From: Bryopsis sp. KO-2023
Taxonomy: Eukaryota; Chlorophyta; Ulvophyceae; Bryopsidales; Bryopsidaceae
Assembly: GCA_030272585.1 (NCBI GenBank)
Contig: BSYQ01000002.1
Span: 4,402,001-4,466,000 of the forward strand
Direction: 5' to 3'
Length of the DNA: 64,000 nucleotides
Below the pieces are notes generated by a model. It worked only from the letters and a program-made list of their open reading frames with translations. It did no database searches and was not told the origin of the DNA. Made by a program: the position numbers and the translations under genes. Positions 6,249 through 52,890 of this stretch are shown here, piece after piece (the stretch's first letter is position 1; each line of letters starts with the position of its first letter).

Positions 6249-6433
6249 TATTAGGCTATGCACTCATCAACGCGTGTTGCTATCTTTAAACAACTTCGGT
6301 AAACCGTGGTTCGGAGGAAGCAAAAAAAGTTCAATAAGTTCTAATTAGTGACGCGCATGAAGGAATTAGCGAGGCCCAAGCCAAGCAGTCATTGACTTAG
6401 CATAATCATTGACGTGGTCGAGGTCGTGGCCAG

Positions 6434-6646
6434 CAGTCATGGGCTGCACAGAACTGCACAGAATCTGCACAGATTTGGCACAGAATCTGCACAGAACTGC
6501 ACAGAAACTGCACAGATGTTGCACAGACCCTGTCTGTGCTGTGCTGTACAGGTCTGTGCACCTGTGCAGCACAGGTCTGACCCTGTGCACAGCACAGACA
6601 GTCTGTTCTGTCCTGTCCTGTGCACAGGGGTCTCAGCCCATGTCTG
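6434..6646. mobile_element. word-array element A (213 bp, 8-bp TSD)
   Basis: The left end reads CAGTCATGGGCTG and the right end, inverted, CAGACATGGGCTGAGACCCC. The perfect 8-bp duplication GTGGCCAG lies at 6426-6433 and 6647-6654. The whole interior is made of CTGTGC/GCACAG words in both orientations, giving a strongly self-complementary sequence with no stops in several frames. The CAG...CTG ends and 8-bp duplication are typical of hAT-like non-autonomous elements. It sits in the 3' part of a minus-strand coiled-coil reading frame, and the duplicated target is part of that frame. Element B at 9407 has the same ends and the same words. Confidence 0.8.
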
Positions 6647-6654
6647 GTGGCCAG

Positions 6655-7567
6655 CAGTGATTTCGACATTCGTCATTGTGATATCCTTCACTTTGTGCAT
6701 GTCCACCTTGTCCTTGATTCTCCCATCGCGGACTAACTGAGCTTGGGTTGCTGCTGTGTCTATCCGCGACGAAATCAGTCCGGTACCAAAATCGGCCATC
6801 GATTTAGGAAAATCCCGTAGAGTTGCCTTTAACCTTTCCACCTCCACTTTTGATGCCACGAGCTCCGACATGAGGATGCGTGCCTCGGTCGAATTACAGA
6901 ATTCGCCGTGGTGTTCCGCTTTTTCCAATGCTGCTTTGATGGAGGCTAACTCCTTGCGCGTCGCAACCAAGTCTTGATATCTTTTCTCGCCTTCCTTGAT
7001 CATCTTCTTATTTTCAGTAACATACCATGCCACGTCCGCTGTGGCTTTGTCCGCCGCCTTCTTGAACCGAAGTTCTGCAGCCTGAGCGGACTTGAGAGAC
7101 GTGGTGAGGCGGTCTATTTCTTGATCTTTTGCGGTGAGCTCTTTCTTGATGACTTTCAGCTTTGTGTCCGCGCCTCGAGCTCGCACCTGCGCATTACAGA
7201 GTTTTTGCTGCAGGGCACGATATTGGTTTTTCCAATCCGCCTCGAGTTTCTCCTTCTCCGCCTTTCTCTCCACCTCCTGTACCACACAGGCGCTACAAAA
7301 CTGTAACACGTCCGCCTCCCTGAGTTTAGCCGCCATCTCGCAGATTTCCTCCTCTTGCGCGTCCCTCTCCGTTACTCCCTCTTGTCACTTTTTGCTTAAA
7401 ACACCGTAGTCGGCGGACAAATCAGCGTGCATGTCAATCGCTTCGCTCCCAGCTTCTACGGCTTCCGTGAGTTCGATTTGCAACTTTTCCGCTGTTTCTT
7501 TCCATTCGTCCCTTTGTTGCCAAACGCAGTTCAAATGCTGCTCCGCTGAGTTCTTGGATCCCGACAT
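6655..7567 (-). pseudogene. coiled-coil protein coding region, interrupted
   Basis: The minus strand carries a long heptad-rich protein, dense in Glu, Lys, Ala and Leu, from a start near 7567. The main open part runs about 225 residues before it enters word-array element A. I see no catalytic domain, only extended coiled coil with a single short Cys pair near the N-terminal part. It could be a host structural protein or the Gag-like protein of a decayed non-autonomous retroelement; similar coiled-coil stretches occur near 13.0 kb, 47-48.6 kb and 57.5 kb. The frame is broken, with a small number of breaks plus the element A insertion at its 3' end. Confidence 0.55.
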
Positions 7568-8933
7568 TGCGTATAGCTTGGTGCCTTGGTGTTTTGAGAG
7601 GGTCGGTGAGCGTGTGCGCGTAAACGTTTTGGCAAAATAGGCTGGAGGGTTGCCGCTTGACGAGTTGAGCTTGTAGGTTTTTTTTTTTTGAGGATGTGTA
7701 TGTTATTTCCTTTTTTTATATTATTATTTATGTAATAATATTATTTTTTTTATTTATTTCTTTTATTTTATTAATTTTTATATTATTCACATCTTCTTTC
7801 CTTCTTTTTTTGAATTGCTACTTTCTAAGCCAACTCCCTTTCCTTCTGGACCTGAGTTTGGACATTACTTATTTGGGGTTGTGTCTCCCCATAAGACTCT
7901 ATTTCTTTCCTTTGGCCTGATTTATCAAAATTCCCTTTACCGGCCTGTACTCTTGTTCATTTATTTACTAGCTCGTTCGTTGACTCCTCCAATTCAATAA
8001 TTTCTTCATCCTCTGGTGTTATGCCCTCCTTGCCTGAGTGTGCCGCCTCCACTAGCCATGTGGGTGGCGTGGTGTAGTGGCCCACTACTAGTGGGTGGTC
8101 GATGTCACATCCCCCTGATGGGTGATGTGACGGGACAGGATGTCCGCCTAGCTTGCTAGGTTCCTCCACGTGGTTGATGGGACCCATGGGGTTGGGGGAT
8201 TAAAGGACTTCAAGGGGCTGTCCAGGGGGCTTCTTTTGGCGACAACAAGGTGTTAGGGGAGGTTCTAAACATCTGGGGTATAACCCTATTGCATCTGTCT
8301 CACCAAAGAGACTAATTTGATTATCACCGGCATCGACTTTTATGCATAATCCATCCTACAGCCCTCTTTTCAGGTCTTCCTTTCGACTTTTGTTCCCCAT
8401 ATCATGTTTCCCAGCATCAAACACCATGATGATATTTACCGCCACACAATTCCAAATATTCTTCCTCCCTCACTTCCAAAACTACTCTTCTTCCCTCTTT
8501 TTTAGCACCTGTCTTGTTTCCTCTAGCTTTCTCTTCCTCGCCTTACTTTTTCAAACCAATTAGAATATGTAAGCGCCACTCTTTCCCACGCAATCCTCAA
8601 GCTTCGGCACACTCTCATATCGAGGACAATTTTATATGTCAGTGCATTGGCCCACAAATAAGTTTTTCATGCTTAAATAGATACCACTGAACTGTTATCA
8701 TGTTGTGTGAAAAAGTAGTTACATTTATGTACGTATTAAAAAATGATTCATTCCATTTATATAATTCAAGGATCTACCAATGAATTTTTTCTGCAAGTTG
8801 ACTGAAAAAAATAAAATATCTATGTTCAAATAATAGAGTTCAACCTTCCGGGGAGAAGAAAAAAGGATATAGGATTGAATGAAGACAGAACATAGATAAG
8901 GCTCATGAAAAATGCCTTACAAAACATCAAAAG
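7568..8933. other. mostly non-coding, AT-rich
   Basis: 7680-7830 is T-rich low-complexity DNA. A 76-codon minus-strand frame at 7957-8187 ends in an acidic tail. It lies just upstream of the coiled-coil region on the same strand and could be an N-terminal exon of it, but no splice pairing was convincing. The rest shows nothing recognisable. Confidence 0.4.
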
Positions 8934-9398
8934 TTATACAACCTCAAAATAGATCATTCCAATTCGTAAATTATCTCCAACAAGATCCACATGAACACGA
9001 AGGTCCGAATTGCAAACCCAAAATTTCACTTCAATTCTTATCAGACAATCATCTCTCCCCGTTACAGTTGTTGTTGGTAGGCCCTCTTTCACAACGTTCG
9101 ATAAACTAGACAAATAAGAGTTCACTAGTTCACTGAAGATCATTCTAATTCGTGACTTGACTGTGACAGAATTGACATGAACACGAAGTTCGGAATTGCT
9201 CATATGCAAAGTTTACTTGTATCCTTAAAATATGCGGGTCTCTTGTTTGTGTGTGCACGGGGCACACTACGGTTTCACTAGTTTTGTAACAAACCAAATT
9301 TCCGTTTTCTCCCCCGAAAAAGATTGAAACTAACCGTTCCCCTACAAGCGATTCAATAATTCGAATGCTATTGAATAGGAAATATATCATCTCAGGCG
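8934..9398 (-). pseudogene. decayed ORF with an internal protein repeat
   Basis: On the minus strand two copies of a diverged segment can be read. One contains NSELRVHVNS followed by RIRMIFSELV (about 9125-9209), the other NSDLRVHVDL followed by LRIGMIYFEVV (about 8934-9020). The period is about 63 residues. A further related piece continues to about 9390, up to the edge of word-array element B, in a different frame. The family is unknown. Repetition at the protein level suggests a formerly real repeat protein rather than chance. Confidence 0.35.
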
Positions 9399-9685
9399 TT
9401 GCGTCCCAGTCATGGGCTGCACAGGACAGGGTTCTGTGCGGGTTCTGTGCTGTCCTGTGCGGCGAAAATCCACGGGACAGACCCACGTCTGTCCTGTGCT
9501 GTACAATGACTGTGTAACCCCGGACTTCGACCCCCTGTACAACCTGTGCGCACACGTGAGACTGTGTACAGCACAGACTGCGTACTGTGCTGCACAGACC
9601 ACGTGTACTGTGTGCTGCACAGACCAAGTACTGTGCAGCACAGTACTTGATCTGTGCAACACAGACCTTGATCTGACCAATCTTA

Positions 9686-10281
9686 CGCCTGTTTTAGACA
9701 GGTCGGTGTGACTTAATTAAGCGCACATAAGCGTGCTAATCGAGTATCAACCAACTGGGAAGATACTTAATTAATTAAAGAACTAAGTGATATTATTATA
9801 TCCATTATCAATGCATGAATGACGTGAGCCAAGCTCACCAGCCTCGAAATAGGGCTGTCGGTCGACAGTAGGATTCGAACTCGGGTTGGCTAAGTCCGAG
9901 TCCTACACACCAAACCAATGGCGGACCCCACCACAGGGACGCCCAAGTGGGGGCTGTTACCCTTAAGTACCTAGTTTTCGTAATTAAAAAAAATGGGTAC
10001 TTAAAGGTAACGGCCCCCACTTGAGCGTCCCTGTGGTGGGGTCCGCCATTGGTTTGGTGTGTAGGACTCGGACTTAGCCAACCCGAGTTCGAATCCTACT
10101 GTCGACCGACAGCCCTATTTCGAGGCTGGTGAGCTTGGCTCACGTCATTCATGCATTGATAATGGATATAATAATATCACTTAGTTCTATAATTAATTAA
10201 GTATCTTCCCAGTTGGTTGATACTCGATTAGCACGCTTATGTGCGCTTAATTAAATCACACCGACCTGTCTAAAACAGGCG
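9686..10281. repeat. 596-bp near-perfect palindrome
   Basis: Two arms of about 285 bp are almost exact reverse complements around an AT-rich spacer of about 23 nt centred near 9983. Each arm runs from CGCCTGTTTTAGACAGG through an AATTAA-rich part to a segment with a Pol III B-box-like motif. The arms differ at only a few positions, so the palindrome is either young or kept uniform by gene conversion. Such long palindromes are unstable in cloning and replication. Confidence 0.85.
10049..10096 (+). promoter_or_regulatory. tRNA-like Pol III box motifs in palindrome arm (mirrored at 9871-9918)
   Basis: GAGTTCGAATCC (10085-10096) fits the B-box consensus GGTTCGANTCC at most positions, and a TTGGTTTGGTG stretch about 35 nt upstream resembles an A box. 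The mirror copy in the other arm puts the same boxes on the minus strand. The T-stem bases do not pair as in a real tRNA, so this is at best a SINE-type promoter relic. Confidence 0.35.
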
Positions 10282-10612
10282 TACTAGGTGTAAGACCGTA
10301 GTCTGTGCAGCACAGACTGCGGACTGTGCAGTACAGTACTTCATCTGTGCTGCACAGTCCAGACAGACTCTGCACAGACGTGTGGTCCCGAGCGCCTGTG
10401 CGCACCTGTTTTGTCCTGTGCGCAGCACAGGCAATAATCGCCCTGTGCTGCACAGACAGGCGCACAGACCTGCACAGTCAGCGCAAAGACCCATGTCTGT
10501 CCTGTGCTGTACAAGTCTGTGCGCCTGTGCTGCACAGGTCGAACCCTGTGCACAGAACAGACAGTCTGTCCTGTCCTGTGCACAGGGGTCTCGGCCCATG
10601 TCTGTTGCGTGC

Positions 10613-12180: not shown

Positions 12181-12859
12181 GCTGCATTTTTAAAGTGTGC
12201 TTAAACCTGAAAGGTACTTTCGTAATCTCCAGGTAATTTTCTATTCGTTTAGATCTTGACGACCCCTACAGTCTAGCTGCTTTATATTTGAACTCTTTCC
12301 TCTCAAACAACCCAACCCACTTATATTGCATCACATTTTGATGTTTTTAAGAAAGATTCTTGGCTCCACTAATGGTTGGTGTCATGTACCTTAATGAAGT
12401 TAATGTTGCAGCGTGGTGTGGATACGCTGTAGCAACGATCTGTTGGTCGGGTCGCTACAGTTAATCTGATAAGTTCCGAATCTCTGATGTCCATGCAGTC
12501 CTCAGTTGTCTTCCGCCAATATATTCTTTCACTTCTTGAACAAGAGAAGGAGAATGCCGTAATGATCTATAGAATATAGGAAGAGCAAAAGTGCAAAGTC
12601 GGAACTGGGAGTAACTTTTCCTTGTTGCCAATTTCCTTTTTTTTTTTTTTTGGTTGCGCACTACTTACCGCTCTGTTGGTGAGATTCATCGATCACCCTT
12701 CCTTTTGACCAAGCAGTCAACATTGTTTCTTTTACGGTTGTAGATCGTCTTCCTAGTGGTCAGAGGGTCTTGTTTGCCTATGTCGTGGCTCACGATGACC
12801 CCGTTCAACCTCTTTCGCGTCCAAAGCATTTACTAGTTTAAGGAGGTTGTCAGACGATC

Positions 12860-14160: not shown

Positions 14161-14234
14161 GCCCGCATTCTTGTCGTTTCAAGTAAAGATGACTTGTACA
14201 TGACAATTGTTTAAACCCGTTAGACAAAGTTAGA

Positions 14235-16310: not shown

Positions 16311-16541
16311 ATTACGTGCAGACCTGGGCGCCGACCCGTTGGACCGGACCGGACCGGCAACCACTTTCTGGACCGGATTTGACCTTTCTTAGACAGGTCA
16401 AATCCGGTTTGGAAAGGTCAAATCCGGTCCAAGAAAGGTCAAATCCGGTCTAGTAAAGGCCACCTTTTCTAGACCGGATTTGACCTTTCTAGACCGGATT
16501 TGACCTTTCCAGACAGGTTGTCGCCTGTCTAGTACGGTCAT

Positions 16542-16573
16542 TGATAAGGGGGTCTAGGACCCCGAGACACAAG

Positions 16574-16610
<37 letters not shown>

Positions 16611-16714
16611 TCACTGGGAAGATTAATTTTTACAGGAGGGCCCCCTGCCCTATAAACCCTGTCGTACATCCCATTGTACTACACAATAACCCTAAACCCG
16701 AGTTACTACTATCA
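16542..16714 (-). repeat. 3' LTR of the gypsy element (173 bp)
   Basis: Matches the repeat at 24484-24656 along its length. It contains a (CA)n(GA)n microsatellite near 16572-16611, which is a fast-changing tract, so identity there supports a young insertion. Confidence 0.95.
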
Positions 16715-16735
16715 ATTTGTCCCCCCCCCCACGAG
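16715..16735 (-). other. polypurine tract of the gypsy element
   Basis: On the minus strand a G-run ending in GACAAAT lies directly against the 3' LTR, where the plus-strand primer tract is expected. Confidence 0.6.
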
Positions 16736-16998
16736 AGGGTGTCCACACCCGTCACAACCCTGGAAAGAAAGAAAGAAAAAGGTCGAACTAGAAGAAAAAG
16801 AAACCCCAAACAAACCCACAACAAAAACCCCAACTAAACGTCAAACTAAACCCCAAACAAACCGATGAAAAATCCCAAACCAAACCCATGCTCAACCCCA
16901 CAGAAAAACCCCGTTCTGTCTTGAGGCTTGGTCTCTGGCTTGGACGGTAGCTTGGTCTCCGGCTTGGTCTGCTTTTCGTTGTCACTCCAGAAGCCATC

Positions 16999-19900
16999 TC
17001 AGCCGCCAGCTGGTTGTTCAGCTGGTTCGGCAGCTGGATCATCGACTGGTTCTGCCACCAAGTCGATCGGAGGCTCGTCGTCCTCATCCACATCCAAAGG
17101 AGGGAAATCCTCATCCAAAGGTGGAGGAAGAGGTCCCAAAGACGAGGGCTCCGAGGATGGACTCCTGCTGGACACGGAAGGACTTTTTCCTTCGTCCTGT
17201 TCTGGGTCCTGTTCTCCTTTTGTTTCTGGTTCGGGTGTTCTCTCTTTTTCCTGCTTCTCATACTCCTCCGCCCACTTTTTCACCAACGGACCCAAGCGCT
17301 TCAGGGCAAGGCCTTTCGGAAAGCCCATGTCCCTTCGCAAGCACTGATAGCACTCGGTGAGAGTCTGGGTCGTGGGTGGAGCCTGAAGGAGTGGCTGGAA
17401 GTCTGGCTCCCGCATGTCCAAATGTAGGTCCTTCAGCTGAACCTGTGGCGGGTCGATTCGCTGTTCCTGCCACACCCCGTATAAGCGCACGAGGATAATC
17501 ATGAGGTTCCAGTGGGTTCGGCACACCGTGTGGTTCGTGCATGTGGTGATCACGTAGCTATCCGCCAGCGCCGGCGGCGAATAGCACCACAAGCAGATCG
17601 GTGGCTTTTCCCCACGCCTGTCCTTGAACCTCTTGGACATGTCGGCGAGCGCCTCCTCTTCCTCCGTTTGAGGATGGTATCCAGTGCTCATCCGGAGCTG
17701 GGTACCTAAAAGTCTGAAAAGGGAGGTCCAGAACAAACTTGTGAACCTTGGATCCCGATCCGAAACTATGATTTTAGGCAGCCCGTAGTGTTTGTATATG
17801 TTCTCCACGAACAGCTTTGCGTATTCTGGCGCCGTGATAGTTTTGTTACAGGGTACGAACCTCGCATACTTCGTCAATCGGTCTACAAAGACAGCGATTG
17901 CTGTGAAGCCATGGGAAGACGGTAGGTCGGTAACCAAGTCCGTCGTGATCTGTTCCCATTTCTGGTCTGGGATAGGCAACGGCTGCAAAAGACCTTTCTG
18001 TCTTTGCAAGTCCGATTTGTTTAGTTGACAAGTTGGGCACGTTTTCACGTATGCCTTTACGGCTAACCCAACGCCTTTCCACCAGTAACTGCGGGTAAGT
18101 ACTTCGGTCATGCGGTCTGCTCCAACATGACCGGCACTGGGAACGTCGTGATGCTCTTCCAGAATCCGTTTCTGGAAAGAAGCAGGGACCACAAGCAAAC
18201 TAGGACCTGGGTCTGTCTTGGTATAATACAAGAACCCGTCGTCCAGCTTGTATTGCGGAGAAACCCCTCGTTCCATCCTTGCAAAGATAGGCTTGAGTTG
18301 TTCATCACTTCTCAAAGCCTCTTTCCATGCCTCCTTCTCTGCCACTTCCCAAGTGGAGAGGTTATTGAGCTGGTCTGGCGGACCAGGAAGGCTCCGGGAT
18401 AACGCATCAGCCAAGACATTGGCTTTCCCCTGGATATAGACGATTTTTGGACCTATGGATTGGAAAAACCCTGAGTTTAACCACCGGGTTTGGGTCCGCG
18501 ACAACGTGCTCTGGTTCATGAAGTGGGTGATCGGTTTGTGGTCCGTCAACACCTTCACACCCCCATCGCATCCCTCAAGGTAGTGTCGCCACTGGGCTAA
18601 AGCATATGCTATTGCCCCCAGCTCCCGCTCATATGCGGAGTATCGCGTTTCAGCTGGTTTTAATCGTCTGGAAAGGTATGCAATTGGTTGCAAACCTTTC
18701 CCATGATCCTGGGTAAGAACCGCTCCATATGCAGTTCCAGATGCATCCGTTATTACGGTGTACTCCCTAGCCGGATCAGGAAGGAGTAAGATCGGTGCGC
18801 GGCTAATCCGATCCTTAAGTTCGTTGTAGGCATTGCGTTGGTTCAGCCCCCATTCCCAGACAGTATCCTTCTTGGTTAGATCTGTCAAGGGACTCGCAAT
18901 CCTAGCGAACTCAGGAATGAACTTACGATAGTAAGACACCATTCCCAGGAAACTTCGCACATCAGTGACCGAAGTTAACTCCTTCCATTGTTGAATAGCC
19001 TTAACCTTATCCTGCATCGGTTGAAGGCCTTTTTCCGACAAATGATACCCCAGGTAGTCCGTCTCTGCTACCCCTACTTCGCACTTACTAGCTTTTGCGT
19101 ACAACTTATGTTTCCGCAACCGTTCAAAGACCAGTTTTAGGTGCTCGACGTGCTCTTCCACCGAGTTGGAAAAGACCAGGATGTCGTCGATAAACACCAC
19201 TACAAATTCGTCAAGGAACTCCCCCAGCAAATCCTGAACCATGGTCTGGAACTGGGCTGGGCAGTTGGTCATTCCGAACGGACACACGAGAAATTCGAAA
19301 TGTCCGTATCTCGTCCGGAATGCCGTCTTGGGAGTATCCTTGGGTCGAACGGGAAACTGCCAGTAGCCTGAGCGGAGGTCGATCTTCGTATAGATCTTCG
19401 CTCTGGCGAGACGGTCCATTAACTCCTCAGGAAGAGGGAGTGGATACCTATTCTTTACCGTGAATTTGTTGATCCAACGGTAATCCACACACATTCTCAA
19501 CCCTCCGTCTTTCTTGGGAACAAAGAGTATGGGTGCGCCCCAGGGACTCTCGGAGGGTCGGATCTTCCTTTGTTCGAGGAGGTAATCCACCTGTGTCCTA
19601 ACTTCGTCCAGCTCGGCTGGAGAGAGTTTGTACAAGGGACGGTGGATTGGGGTCATTTGTTCGTCCTCCAGGTCCACCTTAAATTCGTGGCCTTTTCTGA
19701 CTGGAGGAACGCCGGGTGGTAAGTCTTTCGGGAACACATCCTTGAAACTTGTGAGGACAGCCTTGATCCTTGGGTCGAGACCCGAATGCATTACCTTTTC
19801 CACATCCGGCTGGAGATAAGCTGGTGTGGTTCCAGTAGCGTTCAAACGCTCTTCTGGAATTCCCGGATATGGATACTGCATGAGATGTGCCATATCTTCC

Positions 19901-20952
19901 GGGGTGGTTGGTCGCACAACCACAAGGTATGCCTGATCAACTTCTGGACTGTTCTTCACGAGCGAGAATAACTTCTTCGCTGAGACTGTATCAATAGCCG
20001 GTGCTAGGTGCTGTAAGTAATCTGATGGTCGTTCCTTCATAGGAACAGTTGTCCATCCAGCACCCACTGGAACTTTGAGCGTGCCTGTTGCAAAGTCCAG
20101 TTTGGGATTGGTCTGCATCAACCAAGGAAGCCCTAGTATCATGTTATACGAAAGGTTTGGGAAGACGTCTGCGGAAAGGGTTGTGGTATAAGTACCCATC
20201 CTGAGCTGCAAGTCTTCGCATCGCCGATCAAGTGAACATAGGGTTCCGTCCGCCAAAGTGACTCCCTTTTTGCACTCGGTTGTTTCGAGTTTCAGTCTCG
20301 TAACTAGTTTCTTGGTAATGTAGTTCTCCGTTGCACCACAATCAACATAGGCGGAGATCGGTACTCCTCCTAATCTGGCTCGGATCTCATATCCCATAAA
20401 TTTCAAATGGTTAGGACCTCCTAGTGGTAACATACGCTCAGAAGGTGAATACTGACCTTCATCCACTTTTTGTCCTCTACCTGTTCCCTGAACAGGGGCT
20501 GCTGACTCGTCAGTTGGTGGTGAACGAGTGGCAGGCTTATTTGATTCCCTTGCGGGTTCCCTTCCTTCCGGACTTCGTTTCGTTCCTTGAGGCGGGAACG
20601 ATACCGAATTCTCAGTTCCTTCAGGACTACCAAGGTCTCCATGAACAGAGTCGACAGGTTCCGAACTTGATTCTGAACTTGTCCTAGTAAGCGTGCTGCA
20701 CTTACTGGATCGAGTTTCCAACTTAGCACTCATAATCGATCCCTCTGCACCTTGGGTAGCATTCTTTTCTATTTCCCCTTGTGCTCTTTTATTCACTTCT
20801 GCATTTCGAGCTAACCTTTCTTTTCTAAGAAGTTTCTGGCGCTGCTTATATCTGTGACGGCGTGCCCTTCTGCGTTTCGCCGAACGAGTCTGGGCTCTGT
20901 TCATCCGGCTTTTTCGTTTAACCATTTCTTGAACTTTTCGCCCTCTGGACAC
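16999..20952 (-). CDS. pol: gypsy Pol polyprotein (1317 aa): protease, RT, RNase H, integrase
   Basis: A single open frame. The first 180 residues are basic then Ser/Pro-rich. The aspartic protease has its DCGA motif near residue 204, followed by ILGLPWL. Reverse transcriptase lies at about 450-650 with YPLPLPEELMDRL and the catalytic FIDDILVF near 605. RNase H starts near 735 (VITDASGTAYGAVLTQ). The integrase zinc finger HH...CPTC is at about 945-985 and the catalytic core follows. The C-terminal 200 residues form a Pro/Glu/Asp-rich tail. The domain order (integrase after RNase H) is Ty3/gypsy and excludes copia. It overlaps the end of Gag in the -1 frame. As a fossil its breaks are not itemised. 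Confidence 0.93.
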   Translation of the reverse strand: MSRGRKVQEMVKRKSRMNRAQTRSAKRRRARRHRYKQRQKLLRKERLARNAEVNKRAQGEIEKNATQGAEGSIMSAKLETRSSKCSTLTRTSSESSSEPVDSVHGDLGSPEGTENSVSFPPQGTKRSPEGREPARESNKPATRSPPTDESAAPVQGTGRGQKVDEGQYSPSERMLPLGGPNHLKFMGYEIRARLGGVPISAYVDCGATENYITKKLVTRLKLETTECKKGVTLADGTLCSLDRRCEDLQLRMGTYTTTLSADVFPNLSYNMILGLPWLMQTNPKLDFATGTLKVPVGAGWTTVPMKERPSDYLQHLAPAIDTVSAKKLFSLVKNSPEVDQAYLVVVRPTTPEDMAHLMQYPYPGIPEERLNATGTTPAYLQPDVEKVMHSGLDPRIKAVLTSFKDVFPKDLPPGVPPVRKGHEFKVDLEDEQMTPIHRPLYKLSPAELDEVRTQVDYLLEQRKIRPSESPWGAPILFVPKKDGGLRMCVDYRWINKFTVKNRYPLPLPEELMDRLARAKIYTKIDLRSGYWQFPVRPKDTPKTAFRTRYGHFEFLVCPFGMTNCPAQFQTMVQDLLGEFLDEFVVVFIDDILVFSNSVEEHVEHLKLVFERLRKHKLYAKASKCEVGVAETDYLGYHLSEKGLQPMQDKVKAIQQWKELTSVTDVRSFLGMVSYYRKFIPEFARIASPLTDLTKKDTVWEWGLNQRNAYNELKDRISRAPILLLPDPAREYTVITDASGTAYGAVLTQDHGKGLQPIAYLSRRLKPAETRYSAYERELGAIAYALAQWRHYLEGCDGGVKVLTDHKPITHFMNQSTLSRTQTRWLNSGFFQSIGPKIVYIQGKANVLADALSRSLPGPPDQLNNLSTWEVAEKEAWKEALRSDEQLKPIFARMERGVSPQYKLDDGFLYYTKTDPGPSLLVVPASFQKRILEEHHDVPSAGHVGADRMTEVLTRSYWWKGVGLAVKAYVKTCPTCQLNKSDLQRQKGLLQPLPIPDQKWEQITTDLVTDLPSSHGFTAIAVFVDRLTKYARFVPCNKTITAPEYAKLFVENIYKHYGLPKIIVSDRDPRFTSLFWTSLFRLLGTQLRMSTGYHPQTEEEEALADMSKRFKDRRGEKPPICLWCYSPPALADSYVITTCTNHTVCRTHWNLMIILVRLYGVWQEQRIDPPQVQLKDLHLDMREPDFQPLLQAPPTTQTLTECYQCLRRDMGFPKGLALKRLGPLVKKWAEEYEKQEKERTPEPETKGEQDPEQDEGKSPSVSSRSPSSEPSSLGPLPPPLDEDFPPLDVDEDDEPPIDLVAEPVDDPAAEPAEQPAGG

Positions 20953-23798
20953 TTACTTTGAATATGTCCAGTTTTTCCACACATATAGCATTTAGGATTT
21001 GCGCCTCCACCTCCACGTCCTTGATTCCTGCCACCACCTCGTCCGCGACCTCGGCCACCACCCCTTCCCCGACCTCGACCTTGGCCAATGTTTTGTGCCT
21101 GGTCTGGCTGGGGTTGCTGTTGGCCACCCATCTGGTTTGCCTTATCAGTCTGGGGTTGGTTTTGCTTTTTATTTTGGCCTCGGCCTTTACCTCCGCGCCA
21201 CCGTCCGCGGCCACGAAAGTTTCCTCCTCCGGATGAGGCAATAGCATCAAGACGAGCCGCCGTCTGGATCGCCAACTCAATGCCGTGCGGCACTTGAGCC
21301 ACAGTTTGTTGTTTGATATGGAACTTTAACCCGTCCACGAAGAAGAAGTATTGTTCTTCATCTGTCATGTTGGGAATCCTCAGCACTTGTTCTCGGAAAG
21401 CAACAATGTACTGATGCACTGACCCAGTCTGTTTCAGGTTCCGTAAGGAGCGCCTGGCTACATCAGACATTCTGGTGGGTTCAAATGCTTGGACCAGTTC
21501 CTCAACAAACTCAATCCAATTTGTGATTGGATGTCTTTTTCCTTCCCTTGTACGCAGATCCTGGACGTTTCGCCACTGAGCAGCAGCTCCGGTCAGGTTA
21601 CTGCGGAAGAGCCTGAACCATACGCTCTCATCGATGTCCAAAGTCTGGCAATAGACCGTCATTTCTAGTTGCCAATCTCTGATCCACCGCTGACCATCAC
21701 CTGAGAAGGCCTTTGGGAAAGGAATACGAACGGATGACGGAATCCGTCCGTGGCGATCTTGCGGAGCAGCAAAGCCTTGGTTAGGGTCTGGAGGACCCCC
21801 ACCTCCACCTCCGCCACCTCCACCTCCACCTGGGTGGTACGGCCATCCACCACCCCCACCTCCACCTGGTCCGGAAAGGAAAGATCCTCCTCCACTTCCA
21901 GGTGGTCCTCCTCCGCCTCCGCCTCCACCCCCAGGCCCACCTCCGGGTCCCCCTCCACCACCACCAGATCGATTTCCACCCTGTGGCTGGCTTGATGGAG
22001 TTGAGGGATAAGAACCCCACCCGTAATACGGGTTACTCGCGGAAGGTGCTCCGTATTGGTTTACGGATTGTCCCAAACTTGGTTGGGTGCCTGGTTGGTT
22101 TCCTGGTTGCATACCAGGTTGGGTGTTAAGAGCCGGGATTGGATAGAAGACAGACAGCGGAACTGTCGTCAGTGGTTGTGTTAACATGGATGTCGTTGGT
22201 GGTAACACACTCGTTACAGGGACACTAAGTATGGGTCTGGCTGTGCCAAGTTGACCCGCTTGGCCGAATGGTGCGCCCATTGCCATAGTTTGTGGCGGCG
22301 CAAGACTCCATGCTGTCCGTGTTCTTGGGGATGTAAATAAACCCCAGGAAGATGGAGAACCTCCACCCACGGAGTCTGCGACAGTTGTCGATGGGCTGCG
22401 ACCACCCAATCCTCCTAACGTGGTTAGACCAGTAAAAGTACTCAGATCCGGAACAGGTGGTACCGGAAATGGGATACTGGTAAGAGGAGTGGATGACACA
22501 AAAGGAACGCTTGTGGCTGCAGCTGTCGTGGCCGGCAAAGTGACCGTGCCAGTTCCTGCTCCCATCATACCCACTACAACTGGGTCCTGAGCCGGGACTC
22601 GAACTTTCTCCCGTTTTTTCCACGCACTCAGTGTTTCTTTGAACTTCGAATCAACATACTTGGAGAGGTTACTTTCCAAAGTCTGCTGTTTCTCTGTCGC
22701 GTCTGATAGAAATTTCTCCATCAGTTGCATCGACCTGTGTCCTCCTGCAGTGTCATCAGAACTCACACTGCCTCGTTCCGCTCTTCTTTGTTTGCGTTGT
22801 TCTTCGGCTTGGTGTAAGTCCCGCAACACTTTTAGGCTCTGGCTTACCAAGCCTGAGAGTGTGTCTAGCTGGCCTTGGTGGTCGACTTGCTCGCACCGAG
22901 ACTCATCAGTAGTCCGAGCTAGGTTATCCAGCGTTGTCTGCTGTAGGCGCATACCTTCAGCAACTTTTGTCAGAGAGGCTTGCAGAGACAGAATTTGTTT
23001 CTCCCTGAGCGCATTGGTCTGATCAACAGCTTCAGCTTGGGTACGGGCTGATTCCTGCAGTCGATCGAGTCGCTCTTGCAGAATAGCCTCGTTATCGTAT
23101 TTACCCAACAGATTTCTGTCGATCCGCTCTATGGACTTTATATTCTGTTCCAGCAATTTGTGCTGGTGGTCTAACAATTTCTGTTGTCTTTCGATAGACT
23201 CAGTATTTTGGTTGACCAGCTTCTGGGCCTCCTTCCTGACATAGAGCACGAACTGCTCATATTCCTCTTTCAGGTCGCCTTTTAAGGTCGACTCTGCACG
23301 CTGAACCTGCTCGTGAACTTGTCCTTCCAGGTTTTGTGCGACCTCTTGCACATTCGAGGAGACAGCGGCATACACATGCTCAGCTGTGTCCCTAAGTTGT
23401 CCCTCGTCCACACCATGAACGTGCACCTCCTGCTGGTGGACGTTTATGTGCTGATGTTCATGGTGAAGGATGTTGGTGACTTCTATTGTCGGGACGTCCT
23501 CCATATCCTCATCATACTCCTCGTCCCCGGACTCTTCCGACTCTTGTTCAGAGTCTAAGTCTGCGTCCGGTTCCTCAACCTGGTCGGGTACATGTCTGTC
23601 CCACTGCAAATCATGTATTTGCTGCGCTGGTGGGTGCACCACATCTGGATAAACCACGGGAATTAGTTGGTTATCCACCACCTCTTCCTCCTCAGGAGGT
23701 GGAATAGGTGGTAGCTGTGGCGGCGTCTGGCCGGACATGTTTTTGTTTGAATTTCCTGGAATTTTGACGTAATAGGAGTGTGTCCGGAAAGTTTCCAA
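20901..23798 (-). CDS. gag: gypsy Gag polyprotein (965 aa)
   Basis: An open frame upstream of Pol. Residues 1-60 are Pro-rich and 70-110 acidic. About 110-420 is long coiled coil (many Gln, Glu, Leu heptads). 480-670 is Pro/Ser/Gly-rich with long glycine runs. A retrotransposon Gag domain follows at about 690-830 (QRWIRDWQLEMTVYCQTL, AAAQWRN). Then comes an Arg-Gly-rich segment and a single CCHC zinc knuckle (CYMCGKTGHIQSKC) near the C-terminus. At 965 residues it is far longer than most gypsy Gags because of the N-terminal coiled coil and the glycine-rich linker. Confidence 0.92.
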   Translation of the reverse strand: METFRTHSYYVKIPGNSNKNMSGQTPPQLPPIPPPEEEEVVDNQLIPVVYPDVVHPPAQQIHDLQWDRHVPDQVEEPDADLDSEQESEESGDEEYDEDMEDVPTIEVTNILHHEHQHINVHQQEVHVHGVDEGQLRDTAEHVYAAVSSNVQEVAQNLEGQVHEQVQRAESTLKGDLKEEYEQFVLYVRKEAQKLVNQNTESIERQQKLLDHQHKLLEQNIKSIERIDRNLLGKYDNEAILQERLDRLQESARTQAEAVDQTNALREKQILSLQASLTKVAEGMRLQQTTLDNLARTTDESRCEQVDHQGQLDTLSGLVSQSLKVLRDLHQAEEQRKQRRAERGSVSSDDTAGGHRSMQLMEKFLSDATEKQQTLESNLSKYVDSKFKETLSAWKKREKVRVPAQDPVVVGMMGAGTGTVTLPATTAAATSVPFVSSTPLTSIPFPVPPVPDLSTFTGLTTLGGLGGRSPSTTVADSVGGGSPSSWGLFTSPRTRTAWSLAPPQTMAMGAPFGQAGQLGTARPILSVPVTSVLPPTTSMLTQPLTTVPLSVFYPIPALNTQPGMQPGNQPGTQPSLGQSVNQYGAPSASNPYYGWGSYPSTPSSQPQGGNRSGGGGGGPGGGPGGGGGGGGGPPGSGGGSFLSGPGGGGGGGWPYHPGGGGGGGGGGGGPPDPNQGFAAPQDRHGRIPSSVRIPFPKAFSGDGQRWIRDWQLEMTVYCQTLDIDESVWFRLFRSNLTGAAAQWRNVQDLRTREGKRHPITNWIEFVEELVQAFEPTRMSDVARRSLRNLKQTGSVHQYIVAFREQVLRIPNMTDEEQYFFFVDGLKFHIKQQTVAQVPHGIELAIQTAARLDAIASSGGGNFRGRGRWRGGKGRGQNKKQNQPQTDKANQMGGQQQPQPDQAQNIGQGRGRGRGGGRGRGRGGGRNQGRGGGGANPKCYMCGKTGHIQSKCPEGEKFKKWLNEKAG

Positions 23799-24461
23799 AC
23801 TTTCTGGTGACTTGGATGCGAACTTGTTTCAGTTCTGGTTGCACTCCTAGTCGCTATCTTTTCTTGAACCTTACTAGGTCAGAAATAGATAGGAGTTTTA
23901 CACTTGACAACGTCGGGTGTTAATTTCCCGTTCGCGTTCTGTCAGCCGACTAGGTTAGTACCTTGGCCGGTGATTCAGTCTACGACTAACTGTAGAACCA
24001 GTCGTGACTCAGGCGGTGCGGTAACCGATTGCGCGCTGGAAAGAGTGACAATGAGTCACCTGCCAGAACGACTGTTTTTCGTGTTACTGGCAGAAGCGTC
24101 AGTCGACGGAAGTTGGTCGTTCCGGACGACGTTCTTTCCTACGCCGGTTCGCCCTTTCGGTTGTTCGCCTGCGCGTTTCGGGTTTACGCCGATCGTTGCT
24201 CTCCTTGCACTGTTGTAGTGCTTTCGCCTTGTTTTCCTTTAGATCTACAGATCTGTAGGTTTCCAGAAATTCGTTCACTGGACTCCGATTCTTTTGCGAC
24301 TTCGCCTGACGTTTTCGAACGACGACGCAAGCACGTCGTTCGAAGGATAGCTCTCCTCGCGACCCCTGGAACACAGAGTTCCAGATCTGTGGGATTTAGT
24401 AATCCCTAAGGTCAGATCTTTGGGGGGGGGTTCGCGAGTTCTCCTGTGGGGTGCGCCTGGC

Positions 24462-24483
24462 CTCGACCAGCTCCGAAACCAAA
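24462..24483 (-). other. primer binding site of the gypsy element
   Basis: Just inside the 5' LTR the minus strand reads TTTGGTTTCGGAGCTGG. The TGG start matches the CCA end of a tRNA primer. The same TTGGTTTCGGAGCT stands at the same place in the second LTR element (46523), so both seem to use one tRNA. Confidence 0.7.
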
Positions 24484-24515
24484 TGATAAGGGGGTCTAGG
24501 ACCCCGAGACACAAG

Positions 24516-24552
<37 letters not shown>

Positions 24553-24656
24553 TCACTGGGAAGATTAATTTTTACAGGAGGGCCCCCTGCCCTATAAACC
24601 CTGTCGTACATCCCATTGTACTACACAATAACCCTAAACCCGAGTTACTACTATCA
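24484..24656 (-). repeat. 5' LTR of the gypsy element (173 bp)
   Basis: Partner of 16542-16714. It starts TGATAGTAG and ends CCTTATCA on the coding strand. The 5-bp duplication GTCAT follows at 24657-24661. Confidence 0.95.
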
Positions 24657-24788
24657 GTCATACTCGTGTGACCTGTTTTAGACCGATGTGACCCTGTTTT
24701 AGACCGGTGTGACGCCCAGTGTGACCTGTTTTAGACCGGCTCCAGGTCGGTCTGGACAGGTGGGCCGCCTGTCCAGACCGATCTGGCA

Positions 24789-24914
24789 CCTGTCTAGAAC
24801 AGGTCACACAATTAAGCACTTTTTAATGTGTTAATTAATTGAATCAGTTCTCAGTCGATTGATACACAATTAGCACGTTAAAAGTGCTTAATTGTGCGAC
24901 CTGTTCTAGACAGG
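24789..24914. repeat. hairpin core shared with element B
   Basis: CCTGTCTAGAACAGGTC plus an ACAATTAAGCACTTTT part is mirrored at 24879-24914. The segment between, read on the minus strand (ACGTGCTAATTGTGTATCAA), aligns with GCGTGCTAATCGAGTATCAA in the palindrome arms of element B near 9731. Confidence 0.65.
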
Positions 24915-25289
24915 CTCCAGATCGGTCTGGACAGGCAGCCCACCTGTCTAGACCGACCTGGAGCCGGTCTAAAACAGGAGAACAACCCTGTCAAGACAGG
25001 GTCGTTCCGGTTTTAGACAGGTCACATCGCCTGTCTAATAAAGGCGAAATCGTAGTGTGACCTGTCTAAAACCGGAAAATCTATCAGAAATCCGGTCCAG
25101 ATTTCTGCAGATCTCCGAGGTTGACTGGACCGGACAGGGACAGGCCAGGACCGGTCAAAGCCTGTCCGGTCTTGCAAGGACCGGCGTTTTTTCACGGGAC
25201 CGGACAGGTTGGCCGGTCCTTAGACAGGTTGGACCGGACCGGACCGGTTTTTCGCTGCCGGTCCGGTCGGGCCCAGGTCTGATTACGTG

Positions 25290-28144: not shown

Positions 28145-28659
28145 CATACTATGGATCTGATCGATCTTCCAAAACTAAGGTAATATTAGGTCACAGCAGT
28201 AATCCGACATCATAACTGCGTCCTAGAACCGATTTTAGCAATGATCGGTTTTTTTTTTTTTTTTTTTCATTTTTGGCTGATCGGTGATCGTGATCGTGAT
28301 CGGCCGATCAAATGTTGATCGTGCTCTTGATCGTCCGATCACATGTTGATCGTGATCGTGATCGGTTCGCCGATCACCGATCTGATCGGTTGTTCCGATC
28401 ACGATCCCGATCACGATCAAGCGCCGCGACCTGTCGGCACTTGATCGGCCGACGTTGATCGGTTTGATCGTGATCGGCCGATCAAAGTTGGCCGATTAAA
28501 TCGGTCAGCCGATCAGATTGGTGATCGGCCGATCTCCATCGATGATCGGCCAAACCGATTTGATCGGCGATCGATCTGATCGGAAAAACCCGATCACGAT
28601 TTAATCGGTCGGACCGATCAATCCACGACCGATTAGATCGTGATCGGATCCATAGTATG
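28145..28659. mobile_element. word-array element E (515 bp, GATC words, 8-bp TSD)
   Basis: Left end CATACTATGGATCTGATC; right end, inverted, CATACTATGGATCCGATC. The perfect duplication CCCGTTGG lies at 28137-28144 and 28660-28667. From 28245 the interior is a T-run of about 18 and then about 370 bases of GATCGG, CGATCA and GATCGTGATCGG words in both orientations. No coding capacity. It is inserted next to a LINE tail fragment. The ends resemble those of elements A-D only loosely (CA.A..ATGG), so it is a related but separate family. Confidence 0.8.
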
Positions 28660-39461: not shown

Positions 39462-40101
39462 ATGCCCGGCAGTACCGTACCGACCCTGCTAAAACTAGGT
39501 CAATACCGACATTTTACCTTAGGGTTTACCTTAGGGTTTAAATCATCTTAACTGACCTTAAACCCTAAGGTGATTTAAGGGATTACACTCATTTACACTC
39601 GGGTGTAATAACGCCCAAGTCGGTATAGTACCGACCCAGGTCGGTACCAGAGTTGTGCGCCGTTGCAACGGCGCACAGCTCTGCATCACACCACACTCAT
39701 TGAATAGCAGATTTCACTCACACTTTGGTAGTTACCAATCCTCGCACCCACATCCCATCATTGGAAAATGTATCAAAGTCGTGCCGTTGTCGTTGTCACA
39801 AAAACGACATCGGCACAACTCTGGTCGGTCCAATACCAACCACGGCAGGTTCTCAAGGTTCTCAACTTGGAACTTTGAATGCTCATAACTTCTCACATAG
39901 ACTTCCGATAGACCCCAAACGAGTTGCAATCGATAGGACATTTCTTTCTCTTGCGATTGAATACCTGAACAAAAACGCAATTTGAATAAGTATAAGAGAA
40001 GTTATGAGTGTTCTTCTAAATCGGTCGGTATTTATACCGACCCCTCTCGGTACGGTACGGTACGGTACGATACGGTACGGTGGGGTCAGTGCCCAGGTCT
40101 G
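39462..40101. mobile_element. word-array element F (about 640 bp)
   Basis: The right end, inverted, reads CAGACCTGGGCACTGACCCC, the same end as element D. The left end is diverged. The 8-bp duplication is CCGGCATT (39454-39461) against CCGGCATA (40102-40109), 7 of 8. Outer arrays use GGTCGGTACC and GGTACGGTACC words. Inside are a CCTTAGGGTTTA inverted pair (39520-39585), a perfect hairpin GTGCGCCGTTGCAACGGCGC near 39655, and a longer inverted pair GCTCATAACTTCTC with GAGAAGTTATGAG (39881 and 39996). No transposase. Confidence 0.65.
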
Positions 40102-45690: not shown

Positions 45691-45697
45691 CTGAGTA

Positions 45698-46299: not shown

Positions 46300-46334
46300 T
46301 TCAAAAATAATGAATGAAAGTGCGGGAATGTCTA
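46300..46334 (+). mobile_element. LINE, short 5' piece left of the LTR insertion
   Basis: Sequence left of the second LTR element reads on into 50218 once the insertion and its duplication GTCTA are discounted; the segment just beyond encodes the LINE pattern ILFPKSGKRFD. Older LINE sequence further left is not recognisable. Confidence 0.45.
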
Positions 46335-49500: not shown

Positions 49501-50029
49501 TGATGAAATGATCCTTAAGGATAAGGACAAGGAAAGCACAACCGAGAGGTGAAGCATTTGGTATGCTTAGGATAGTCTGAGGATAGGGAAGTTGAGGCAT
49601 CGACTTTTCTTGAGGAATCGAATGATGTGCTAAAATAAAAATAAAAAATGGGGCTGATTTGGAAGCCAACAAACCACGGGTATTCGATAAAGTGGAAGGA
49701 GTTGAATAGATCAACTTAATGGAAATAGTGTAGTGATGTCCAAGGAAGCAAGGAAGAACGTTGAAGAGGACAAGGAGAAAAGTAAGAAATTTTATATTTC
49801 ACTTGGTGAAAGGATCGGTGACTTATCAAATTGGGAAGTCTGTTAGATCAATAGTCGGAATAGGTCTTTTCACTTGGACGAAAGTTTGATATTGCTTACC
49901 GGGGATTAGGGATGGAGAGGTTAGATGAAGGGGTGGTGTCCTCTACCTAATCACCCTACCAAATCAAACATGTTTTCAGTAAGAAGTGGTTCCGATTCTG
50001 AGGACAGAATCTTAGGATGGGGGGAGAAG

Positions 50030-50217
50030 TGTAACAAACCCTCTTGGGGGTAGTCACGGACCGACACCTCGGGGAATCGAACCCCCGGTGACTCACCATG
50101 AGTGAGGTGTCTAGGTATTTAGGAGACAAACACTTCTTGTAAACATTCTTGATTCTTGATTCTTGATTCCCTCACTCTCTCACGCTTTGGAACACGAACG
50201 GTGGCACGTTCGTTACA
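50030..50217 (+). repeat. 3' LTR (188 bp) of the non-autonomous element
   Basis: Partner of 46335-46522, preceded by the polypurine tract and followed by the duplication GTCTA. Confidence 0.95.
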
Positions 50218-50601
50218 GTCTAAATGATTAATTCAAGGACAAACTATCCTATTCCCCAAGTCAGGGAAACGTTTTGACTCACCGGAACACCTGCGACCCA
50301 TTACACTGCTGAATGCAATGTACAAGATTTTTGCAAGGGTCGTTGGTGGGAGGTTAAACCGGTGGGTTAACCGGTCACCCAATACCTAGTTGAACAACAT
50401 GACACGTCATACCTTGGTTGCCAAGGAGCCTTGTTGGTGGATTCTGTAATCTCTGCTGATTCCCTTCGCAATAGAAACACGTTGAGGTTGCCTTGGGTCG
50501 ATTGAACGAAAGCTTTCGACTCAGTGTCGCATTATGGTTTAGTGCGACCGATCCATAGAATGCGAATCCCCATGTTACTCAGAAATATTATAGAAAGACT
50601 A

Positions 50602-50942
50602 AACCCCCCCCCCCGAATACAGTACCCCCCCCAAATAGAGTACCCCCCCCCCCAATATAGTACCCCCCGCCGCCCCTGGAAGCAAACGCGGAATAGTGTA
50701 CCCCCCAAAAAGTGACCCCTCCCCCCGGGCCTACCACCCCAAACTTGGTTTTTATGCAATGTTAAGAATCTTCTTATAGTGATGGATGGAGCATTAGCCC
50801 CCTTCCTACCTCCCAAATACCCCCTGGAGGATCCAACCCCCTCTCTAAAAATAGAACACCCCCAAATAGTGTACCCCCTTGAATTTTTTTTCCAAAGTTA
50901 TAATTATTGTACCCCGGGGTACTGTATTCGGGGGGGGGGGGT
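50602..50942 (-). mobile_element. C-tract MITE, copy 2 (341 bp, TA target duplication)
   Basis: Same element as 5908-6248 in the opposite orientation, same length, only a few differences. Flanked by TA at 50600-50601 and 50943-50944. Inserted in the LINE between its KAFDSVS and FQGD blocks. Confidence 0.85.
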
Positions 50943-51114
50943 TAGTGTCCTCTTGGGTGACCAAATTCGAGTTGAGAGTGGGGAAGGGGAGGAGGACATC
51001 AAGGTCCATCACCCTTAAGCAAGGCATTTTCCAAGGAGATACACTAAGTCCACTACTACTCCGCCTTGCAATGGCCACCACAACTGTTATGTTGCGAAAA
51101 GAAGGGGGAGTGGG

Positions 51115-51580
51115 CAGAGATAGGACTTGGGCCAAAATTCTGGTCCGGCTACGGTCCGGTCCGGTTACGGTCGAGTTACGGTTCCGTATTACGGCCGTAA
51201 CTCCGTACCGTAACCGGAGTAATATGTTGTTTTTACGGTACGGAACAGGTACGGTATAGCTACGGTAGCCCCTAAATCATCGTGAAGTAGTGTGGTTCAG
51301 TGCTAAAGCGTTAGGCTGTAGTCTGTAAGGTCGTGGGTTCGAATCCCCCTGGGTTCCTTTGGGTTCTCGGGACCCTGCGGGGGTTACTATTTACGGTTTA
51401 CGGTTGGTACGGTGGTTACGGTCGGTACGGTCCGGTACCGGAGCAGTACGGAGTGGTACGGTGGTCCGGTTCCGAGCACGAAAACCACTCCGGTCCGGAC
51501 CGTAACTACCGTAACCGTAAGTGACCGGAGTGGGGTTACGGTACGGTTTACGGTACCGTAACCGGAAAGTCCTATCTCTG
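51115..51580. mobile_element. word-array element C (466 bp) with a tRNA-like promoter
   Basis: Perfect 14-bp inverted ends CAGAGATAGGACTT...AAGTCCTATCTCTG. The perfect duplication GGAGTGGG lies at 51107-51114 and 51581-51588. Interior words are GGTTACGG, CCGTAACC and GGTACGG in both orientations. Between them, 51260-51375 is a unique tRNA-like segment. No transposase. The element lies in the LINE between FQGDTLSP and DDLKLY. Confidence 0.85.
51293..51347 (+). promoter_or_regulatory. Pol III A and B boxes of a tRNA-derived segment
   Basis: TGGTTCAGTGC (51293-51303) fits the A box and GGGTTCGAATCCC (51335-51347) is a perfect B box, with 31 bases between. The acceptor strands do not pair and the anticodon stem has an extra base, so it is not a working tRNA gene but a SINE-like internal promoter. 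Confidence 0.6.
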
Positions 51581-52890
51581 GGAGTGGGGTCTTACAAGAA
51601 AGATATTGCCTCTCTATGCCTTTTATCGTCAAGTGTTTATTGATGATCTGAAGTTGTATGTTGAGAGGGAAGATTTTCTGAACGATATGATCCAAGTAAC
51701 GGGGAAAGCTGGACATTCAATGGGTCTTGACTTCAGCCCAAGAAAATGTTACGAGACAACCATTCGACGTGGAACTCGACAGGATGACTATACCAGGGTA
51801 ATGTTTCAAATCTTAAGAGACGAACATACAGGAAGATATCTTGGTATAGATCAGAATGCGAGGGTAGATCAAGCTGGACCCATCGAAGGTTGAGAAAAGA
51901 ATTTTTCTGGCGATTCAAAGGAATTTGAATTTCAGAGTGATCAAGTAGACATAAGCCCCGTGGATTGAACTTTTGGGCTATGGGTGTGTTGGAGTATTCC
52001 TTTGGAGCAATCAAATGGACTCTTACGGTGCTAGGAGAAATATAGTGACGCGTGCATGCAATGTTGATTAGGTACAATGAAAAAAGAAACTACCAGTATT
52101 CCAGCGCATGTACATGCTACGTAGGGATGGAGGAGGAGGAGTTTATTCTCTAGTGGATAGATACTGCCGTACCACCCTGAAAACATGTGCTAAGATTGTT
52201 CTTAGTCATGATATGATGATGAGGGCAGTCGACAAGCACGAGCGCATACCCTTGCGACCACAAGAATATAAGAGATGGAGAAGACTAAGAATGTCGTTCG
52301 CAAGGGCAGAATCTTTAACGCAAACAATGGGCATAGGGATTACATTCCCGCCAGAAGAAGGTATGCTGACAGACGGTGTCCCTATTGAAAATATTCAGCA
52401 ACTGGAAAAACTTGACTTTTTCAAGTATAACACCATAAGGATGCTATCCTAAACTAGCACGATATGGGGAAATTCCTCAGAACCATATCAAGAGGATCTC
52501 CGTGGCCGTCGTAGACTTTTGCGTGGATGAAGGCGCCAAAGTATAAAAGATGGCCCAAGCTGAAGGGTACGTTTTCGCCCTCCAGGATGAGCGTGTCGCC
52601 ACAACTTATGTGAAAGCGCTCGTTCAAACGCTTAAAAAAACCTAGAGTGAAGGGTATGGTCTTGCAATAGCGAAACAATACAACACATCTTGAGTGGATG
52701 GCATGGATATTGGTTTGCGTCGTATTTGCAAAGGCATGACGCTGTGCTCAAGGTTTTGTATGCATGGGTACAAGCAAGGGCAGGGTTGACAAAAATTGTC
52801 CGGGGAATTGGCCAAACGCGGAAATTTCCTGAAATGGCGATTAATGAAGACATAGAGATGCGGTGGTTCTTTGCTGTATATATGTGAATC

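What the first reader, a model, noticed from the sequence alone, without database searches (positions are those of the whole stretch)
6426..51588. Six mobile elements built of locus-specific palindromic words share hAT-like ends
At six places (6434, 9407, 16319, 28145, 39462 and 51115) short inverted ends and an 8-bp duplication bracket DNA made almost entirely of one self-complementary word in both orientations. The words differ: CTGTGCACAG (A, B), GACCGG and CCTGTCTAGACAGG (D), GATCGGCCGATC (E), GGTCGGTACC (F), GGTACCGTAACC (C). Yet A, B, D and F share the end CAGACMTGGGCNNNGACCC. hAT transposases are known to bind subterminal repeats; here those repeats seem to have grown until they fill the element. 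A class with conserved tips and freely changing palindromic interiors is not something I know to be described.
Basis: partly seen in the sequence, partly recalled or inferred. Interest (0 to 1): 0.85.

Follow-up and report, generated by a model that had tools for sequence, protein, structure and literature searches.

The report
hAT transposons with family-specific DNA words
These are jumping genes of a known class in a green seaweed, each family marked at its ends by its own repeated DNA word that its moving enzyme probably recognises; unusually, the same word also fills introns of that enzyme's own gene.

Summary
Five of the six places are real hAT transposons: A 6434-6646, B 9407-10604, D 16319-25281 (enlarged by a nested Ty3/gypsy retrotransposon), E 28145-28659, C 51115-51580. 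F (39462-40101) has one intact end and stays doubtful. The host is Bryopsis sp. KO-2023. The genome holds 837 C tips and 385 E tips (controls 0) and 601 A/D tips (control 39). I read one full transposase-bearing element each for A, C, D and E, with exact 8-bp duplications. Their ends carry the family's word at 22-88 per kb, mostly near zero in other families. The short elements keep those ends; some add filler. Two nested insertions have a perfect empty site elsewhere. A and D share a tip because their transposases are sisters. New here: the family's own word also forms arrays inside introns of its transposase gene in A, C and D (26 of 28 C loci; one copy each for A and D). The words are most likely zinc-finger binding sites, as in Hermes and Ac; binding was not tested. 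A new variant of a known kind.

The parts
6434..6646 (+). Element A, 213 bp non-autonomous, CTGTGC/GCACAG words; tips CAGTCATGGGCTG (left) and CAGACATGGGCTGA (right)
   Evidence: 95% covered by local matches to the A autonomous element
6426..6433 (.). 8-bp target-site duplication GTGGCCAG (other copy 6647-6654)
9407..10604 (+). Element B, 1198 bp, A family: word-rich ends 9407-9690 and 10290-10604 around a ~600-bp inverted-repeat filler without A words; duplication 7 of 8
   Evidence: both ends match the A autonomous ends at 76% and 79%
16319..25281 (-). Element D with a nested retrotransposon; own DNA 16319-16541 and 24657-25281, GACCGG and CCTGTCTAGACAGG words; duplication ATTACGTG exact
   Evidence: its outer parts match the D autonomous ends in reverse orientation, 80% over 188 and 85% over 237 bases
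16542..24656 (-). Ty3/gypsy LTR retrotransposon nested in D (gag, protease, RT, RNase H, integrase zinc-binding domains); LTRs ~173 bp; duplication GTCAT
   Evidence: Pfam; LTRs printed, compared by eye; observed only
28145..28659 (-). Element E, 515 bp, GATCGG/CCGATC words; tips CATACTATGGATC; duplication CCCGTTGG exact
   Evidence: fully covered by local matches to the E autonomous element
39462..40101 (.). Element F, doubtful: one intact A/D-like tip at 40101, damaged left end, GTACCG/GGTCGG words
51115..51580 (+). Element C, 466 bp, TACGGT/TTACGG words; tips CAGAGATAGGACTT; duplication GGAGTGGG exact; lies in a reverse-transcriptase-like frame
   Evidence: both ends match the C autonomous element, 91% over 105 and 95% over 124 bases

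Best explanation
The window holds non-autonomous members of four hAT families (A with B; C; D; E) that amplified in Bryopsis sp. KO-2023. Shown: each family has a transposase-bearing element with the same tips, exact 8-bp duplications and long subterminal arrays (about 300-600 bp) of a family-specific half-word; the short copies keep those ends, with or without filler. Inferred: the transposase's N-terminal BED-like zinc finger binds the half-word, and pairs of half-words facing each other are bound cooperatively by two fingers, so that only ends carrying the right word are synapsed and cut at the tip. The tip, read by the catalytic part, changes slowly and is shared by the sister families A and D. 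The word changes faster and keeps co-resident families apart. Own-word arrays in introns of the A, C and D transposase genes are shown as sequence; that they let the transposase bind and tune its own gene is a guess.
For: 150 hAT dimerisation domains (150 of 185 candidates scored), many with equal scores and lengths. Of 28 loci of one hAT family, 25 have a C tip (up to 1 mismatch) within the 1.5 kb held on each side. Full elements with exact duplications: A C4:5651150-5658705 ATCCCAAG, C C5:208340-213329 GTCCTGGA and E C1:3379249-3386098 ACGACGAC, D C7:1845776-1852648 GTAGCAAG. Duplications in adjacent tip pairs: C 13 of 13, E 9 of 9 exact, A/D only 5 of 11; for A/D, 12 outer pairs that I could delimit: 10 exact, 1 at 7 of 8, 1 none. 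Of 27 exact duplications, 24 have a pyrimidine at position 2 and 23 a purine at position 7, like hAT nTnnnnAn (PMC10368747, passages). Empty site: joined flanks of a C and an E insertion match C7:1831659-1831967 at 100% over 309 of 309 bases. Word matrix. Hermes match E = 4.6e-8. BED-like CxxC..HxxxH in A, D and both E proteins. Hermes BED domains bind a quasi-palindromic pair of repeats cooperatively.
Against: No binding or transposition data. The zf-BED profile did not appear in the Pfam scan of the two whole E transposases (the A, C and D pieces scanned do not hold the N-terminus), so the fingers are found by motif only, and none was convincing in C. The structure model of the E transposase was poor (mean pLDDT 45) and was not used. 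C copies match their autonomous element over only 38-49% (12 copies) and ~1-kb E copies over 61-66% (7 copies); the unmatched part of C copies is itself word-rich, which deletion from the one copy read does not explain. Cover of A copies counts local matches in repetitive words and so flatters. A and D BED blocks are about as similar (50% of 38 aa) as the rest (40-65%), so faster change of the finger is not seen. L001, a D-type pair, has no duplication.
Confidence: 0.85

Rival explanations
1. A single new class of element whose arrays expand by themselves, moved by one shared transposase that reads only the common tip; words are tandem-repeat drift.
For: A, B, D and F share the 19-nt end. The C intron array varies from 22 to 33 words between copies, so arrays do expand and shrink. 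C copies have 30-56 words per kb in the part not shared with the C autonomous copy.
Against: Words are the same in the two ends, the short copies and the introns of one family and largely absent from the others. C and E have other tips. Each family has its own transposase between its own tips.
Confidence: 0.07
2. The words are hairpin or small-RNA sources, or DNA-structure elements (foldback), rather than protein binding sites.
For: Half-words in both orientations make hairpins possible; weak microRNA-precursor matches, all below gathering score, reflect that.
Against: In the C intron and in A's two introns nearly all words point one way (0:15, 1:7, 8:0), which gives no hairpin yet keeps the word (the D introns have both orientations). 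Word identity tracks the transposase family.
Confidence: 0.1
3. Assembly artefact or chance repeats.
For: Repeat-rich DNA can be misassembled; long reads were not available to me.
Against: Copies at many places with different flanks and exact duplications, a perfect empty site, control counts 0 for C and E tips.
Confidence: 0.01

Closest known systems
Maize Ac/Ds (hAT)
   Same: 8-bp duplications, short tips, ~200-bp ends with multiple copies of a hexamer (AAACGG) bound cooperatively by the transposase; heterogeneous Ds copies sharing tips and some repeats, many with filler (PMC3260210, passages)
   Different: Here arrays are longer and denser (22-88 half-words per kb), in both orientations at most ends, different in each of four co-resident families, and repeated in introns of the transposase gene (for Ac I did not check introns)
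Hermes (hAT) of the house fly
   Same: Sequence match to the transposase; subterminal repeats bound by BED fingers, cooperatively on a quasi-palindromic pair; nTnnnnAn 8-bp target (PMC10368747, passages)
Galileo (P superfamily) of Drosophila
   Same: Subfamilies share ~40-50 bp of tip but have their own long, internally repetitive ends with extra binding sites for the transposase's finger (PMC3688188, passages)
   Different: Another superfamily (THAP finger, P transposase)
En/Spm (CACTA) of maize
   Same: Subterminal arrays of a 12-bp motif in both orientations bound by an element protein (recalled, not read here)
   Different: CACTA tips, 3-bp duplications, other transposase (recalled)

Membership tests
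hAT superfamily | Transposase with hAT C-terminal dimerisation region (PF05699) | tested here: met
   A, C, D, E839 and E788 proteins or exon pieces all over the Pfam cut-off; 150 scored domains in the genome
hAT superfamily | 8-bp target-site duplication with nTnnnnAn preference | tested here: met
   C 13/13, E 9/9 exact; A/D 10 exact + 1 near of 12 delimited outer pairs, 5 of 11 by blind adjacent pairing; pyrimidine-2 24/27, purine-7 23/27, a relaxed form of the pattern
hAT superfamily | Short terminal inverted repeats, often beginning CAG or TAG (recalled) | tested here: met
   CAGACMTGGGC, CAGAGATAGGACTT, CATACTATGGATC; E begins CAT and the D left tip CAA, departures from the recalled rule
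hAT superfamily | RNase H-like catalytic core with DDE residues | tested here: inconclusive
   Two acidic motifs, VTDH and SVERMFS, align with Hermes VTDR and AASERTFS; which Hermes residues are catalytic is recalled; the model was too poor to use
hAT superfamily | N-terminal BED zinc finger | tested here: inconclusive
   CxxC..HxxxH motifs in A, D, E839, E788; PF02892 not reported for the two whole E proteins; none convincing in C
Ac/Ds-like two-component system | Non-autonomous copies share tips and subterminal repeats with an autonomous element | tested here: met
   Cover and word tables
Ac/Ds-like two-component system | Transposase binds the subterminal repeat and moves the short copies | not testable with these tools
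   Needs binding and excision assays
   C and E have different tips

The most novel reading that the evidence does not exclude
The word is a private address of each hAT family: a binding word that evolves together at both ends and in the introns of the family's own transposase gene, so that the transposase marks its ends, its short parasites and its own gene. The intron arrays then act as an autoregulatory sensor, or as seeds for the internal deletions that make the short copies.
Probability: 0.3. Interest if true: 0.7.

Novelty: new variant of a known kind. Interest (0 to 1): 0.52.

Why it matters
One small genome carries at least four hAT families with different, dense words and many natural variants, some copies identical or nearly so. 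That makes it possible to ask directly how a transposase's DNA-binding part and its binding sites change together and how families avoid moving each other's copies. Own-word arrays inside transposase introns, in the three intron-bearing families of the four read, are to my knowledge undescribed (the listings showed no paper on it; apart from passages of three papers I read none of them) and would give a simple test of transposon self-regulation.

Tried and rejected
tRNA-like sequence: motifs like GGTTCGAATCC in window C, in B's filler and in ~1-kb E copies suggested tRNA-derived filler; ARAGORN (bacterial code) found 0 genes in the window and in 6 loci and the tRNA family did not reach E <= 1 in L069, L045, L039, so I claim only a box-B-like motif.

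Structure prediction of the 839-aa transposase: mean pLDDT 45 with 4 sequences; no fold search was made.

Transposase search in the large protein set: 3 hits, 2 unnamed at 39-40% identity and 1 weak plant BED protein.

A partner for F: none of the autonomous elements compared matched it. L001, a D-type pair, has no duplication. One search pairs adjacent tips and counts copies with the same 20-bp flank once; for A/D it gave only 5 of 11 exact, because word repeats inside the element resemble the tip. One search took any pair within one mismatch of a duplication, a choice that favours duplications. Unpaired A/D tips (such as L002 and two in L006) were left out of the count of 12.

Empty site for the window's C insertion: C20:8784-8996 spans the joined flanks at 85% with length differences, so it is supportive only.

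Palindrome enrichment as the main signal: weak, replaced by both-orientation half-words.
Full report
What is there. The window is C2:4402001-4466000 of a 91-Mb genome in 28 contigs. An HSP90 stretch of that genome is 100% identical to a protein of Bryopsis sp. KO-2023, whose contig length, 6,109,207 bases, equals that of C8, so the host is this coenocytic green seaweed. D is larger than its own DNA: it runs to 25281 because a Ty3/gypsy retrotransposon with ~173-bp LTRs, identical by eye, and a GTCAT duplication sits in it.

How many. The A/D end with up to 2 mismatches occurs 601 times (reversed-pattern control 39), the E tip with up to 1 mismatch 385 times (control 0), the exact C tip 837 times (control 0), the F end with up to 1 mismatch 3 times. 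Among the first 100 C places printed, most stand in pairs that bracket elements of about 466 bp; in the first 100 E places, pairs of about 1025 bp are common. Among 12 held C copies the pairwise identity runs from 82 to 100%, median 84; among 8 E copies 82.5-100%, median 97.4; among 8 A copies 70-97%, median 90. Identical copies at different places point to recent movement.

Autonomous partners. A hAT dimerisation-domain search scored 150 of 185 candidates in this genome, all matching. For four families I read one complete element with exact duplications: A, C4:5651150-5658705, 7556 bp including a nested C and a nested E element; C, C5:208340-213329, 4990 bp; D, C7:1845776-1852648, 6873 bp; E, C1:3379249-3386098, 6850 bp, with an 839-aa open frame for the transposase. 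A second E-type transposase, 788 aa and 64% identical, has the same left tip and word (L068); its right end was not read. Of 28 loci of the C transposase 25 carry a C tip within the 1.5 kb held on each side (L036 and L037 overlap). The E transposase matches Hermes structures (E = 4.6e-8), and the five transposases or their C-terminal exons pass the Pfam cut-off for PF05699.

The words. Counting fixed half-words on both strands, each family is rich in its own word: A word 38-61 per kb in A ends and short copies, C word 61-88, E word 31-35, the two D words 22-29 each (window D and the right end; the D left end was counted). Other families' words stand at 0-3 per kb, apart from GACAGG in A (8-13) and GACCGG in C (3-8); the rest of the window has 0-0.8. 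Local matches to the autonomous element cover 89-100% of 7 of 8 A copies (B 47%, because of its filler), all of window E, 61-66% of 7 ~1-kb E copies and 38-49% of 12 C copies. The unmatched part has 0 A words in B, 3-6 E words per kb in E copies, but 30-56 C words per kb in C copies. So A, B, D and E look like deletion derivatives that kept the ends, some with filler, as Ds2 does in maize (PMC3260210, passages).

Insertion evidence. Joined flanks of the C and E elements nested in the A copy, with one copy of each duplication removed, match an uninterrupted A copy at C7:1831659-1831967 with 100% identity over all 309 bases; seven further copies match at 94-96% over query positions 3-309. The A element itself sits in a D-type gene whose uninterrupted form, with a single ATCCCAAG, is present in L040. 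Of 27 exact duplications, 24 have a pyrimidine at position 2 and 23 a purine at position 7, a relaxed form of the hAT pattern nTnnnnAn that the Hermes paper gives.

Tips and words change at different rates. E839 and E788 (64% identical) share tip and word. A and D (40-65% identical by block) share the tip but not the word. C and E (37-40% in the dimerisation domain) share neither; A and C, 47% there, share neither. With four families this is a pattern, not a law. Galileo of Drosophila shows a like pattern in the P superfamily (PMC3688188, passages).

Words in introns. The only clusters of own words (three or more within 60-bp gaps) inside the A, C and D elements away from the ends lie between coding blocks: two in A (1534-1675, 2261-2433), one in C (2515-2657), two in D (L067 1289-1532 and 3377-3632); E, whose transposase is one open frame, has none. 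Intron borders were judged by eye from GT..AG and neighbouring coding blocks, not from transcripts. In A and D one array lies before the finger-coding exon, so the same intron position seems to carry different words in sister families. In the C family 26 of 28 loci have the array, with 22-33 words; of the other two, L010 has E words there and L022 has none; own words in 1 kb of transposase DNA beside it are 0 in all 28; mono-nucleotide shuffles of the C stretch give 0.57 words against 27. Words in the C intron and in each A intron point nearly all one way, those in the D introns both ways, while the A, D and E ends have both orientations about equally; the C left end is mostly one-way, 16 to 2. 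For A and D this rests on one copy each.

Mechanism. In Hermes, BED fingers bind subterminal repeats, cooperatively on a quasi-palindromic pair; in Ac, the transposase binds AAACGG repeats cooperatively. The Hermes authors think auxiliary binding deep inside the ends unlikely for their element (section heading), which is a caution for long arrays. By analogy the half-words here are most likely finger sites, and facing half-words are sites for two fingers. BED-like CxxC..HxxxH stretches exist in A, D, E839 and E788, but the zf-BED profile did not score in the two whole E proteins and no convincing finger was seen in C. Binding, excision and any role of the intron arrays are inferred, not shown.

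Novelty. The elements are hAT transposons by the tests that gave an answer, so this is a new variant of a known kind. What I did not find in print (listings) are such long family-specific arrays and own-word arrays in transposase introns. The Bryopsis genome paper was not found in the library, so an earlier description of these repeats there cannot be ruled out.

Noticed in passing
window 16542-24656: Ty3/gypsy retrotransposon with about 173-bp LTRs, identical by eye, and GTCAT duplication, nested in element D; gag and pol frames long and open.
   Followed up: partly
L065 4067-5122 (-) and L068 4047-5498 (-): Both E-type elements read carry a second open frame on the opposite strand, 62% identical over 156 aa; the L065 one has no Pfam match: a possible accessory protein.
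   Followed up: partly
window 51295-51360, 9840-10120; L039 ~4290-4560: Box-B-like motif GGTTCGAATCC and tRNA-like stretches in the filler of C, B and ~1-kb E copies; not recognised as tRNA by ARAGORN or Rfam.
   Followed up: partly
window 5953-6348 (+) and 50532-50897 (-): Two very similar low-complexity frames in opposite orientation (LWKKNSRGYTIWGCSIFR...): another dispersed repeat.
   Followed up: no
L010-L037, ~2881-3053: The C intron array differs in length by steps of about 10 bp between copies of the same element, a sign of fast repeat turnover.
   Followed up: partly
window 51000-51900: Element C interrupts a reverse-transcriptase-like frame; similar DNA stands on C20, C22 and C2.
   Followed up: partly
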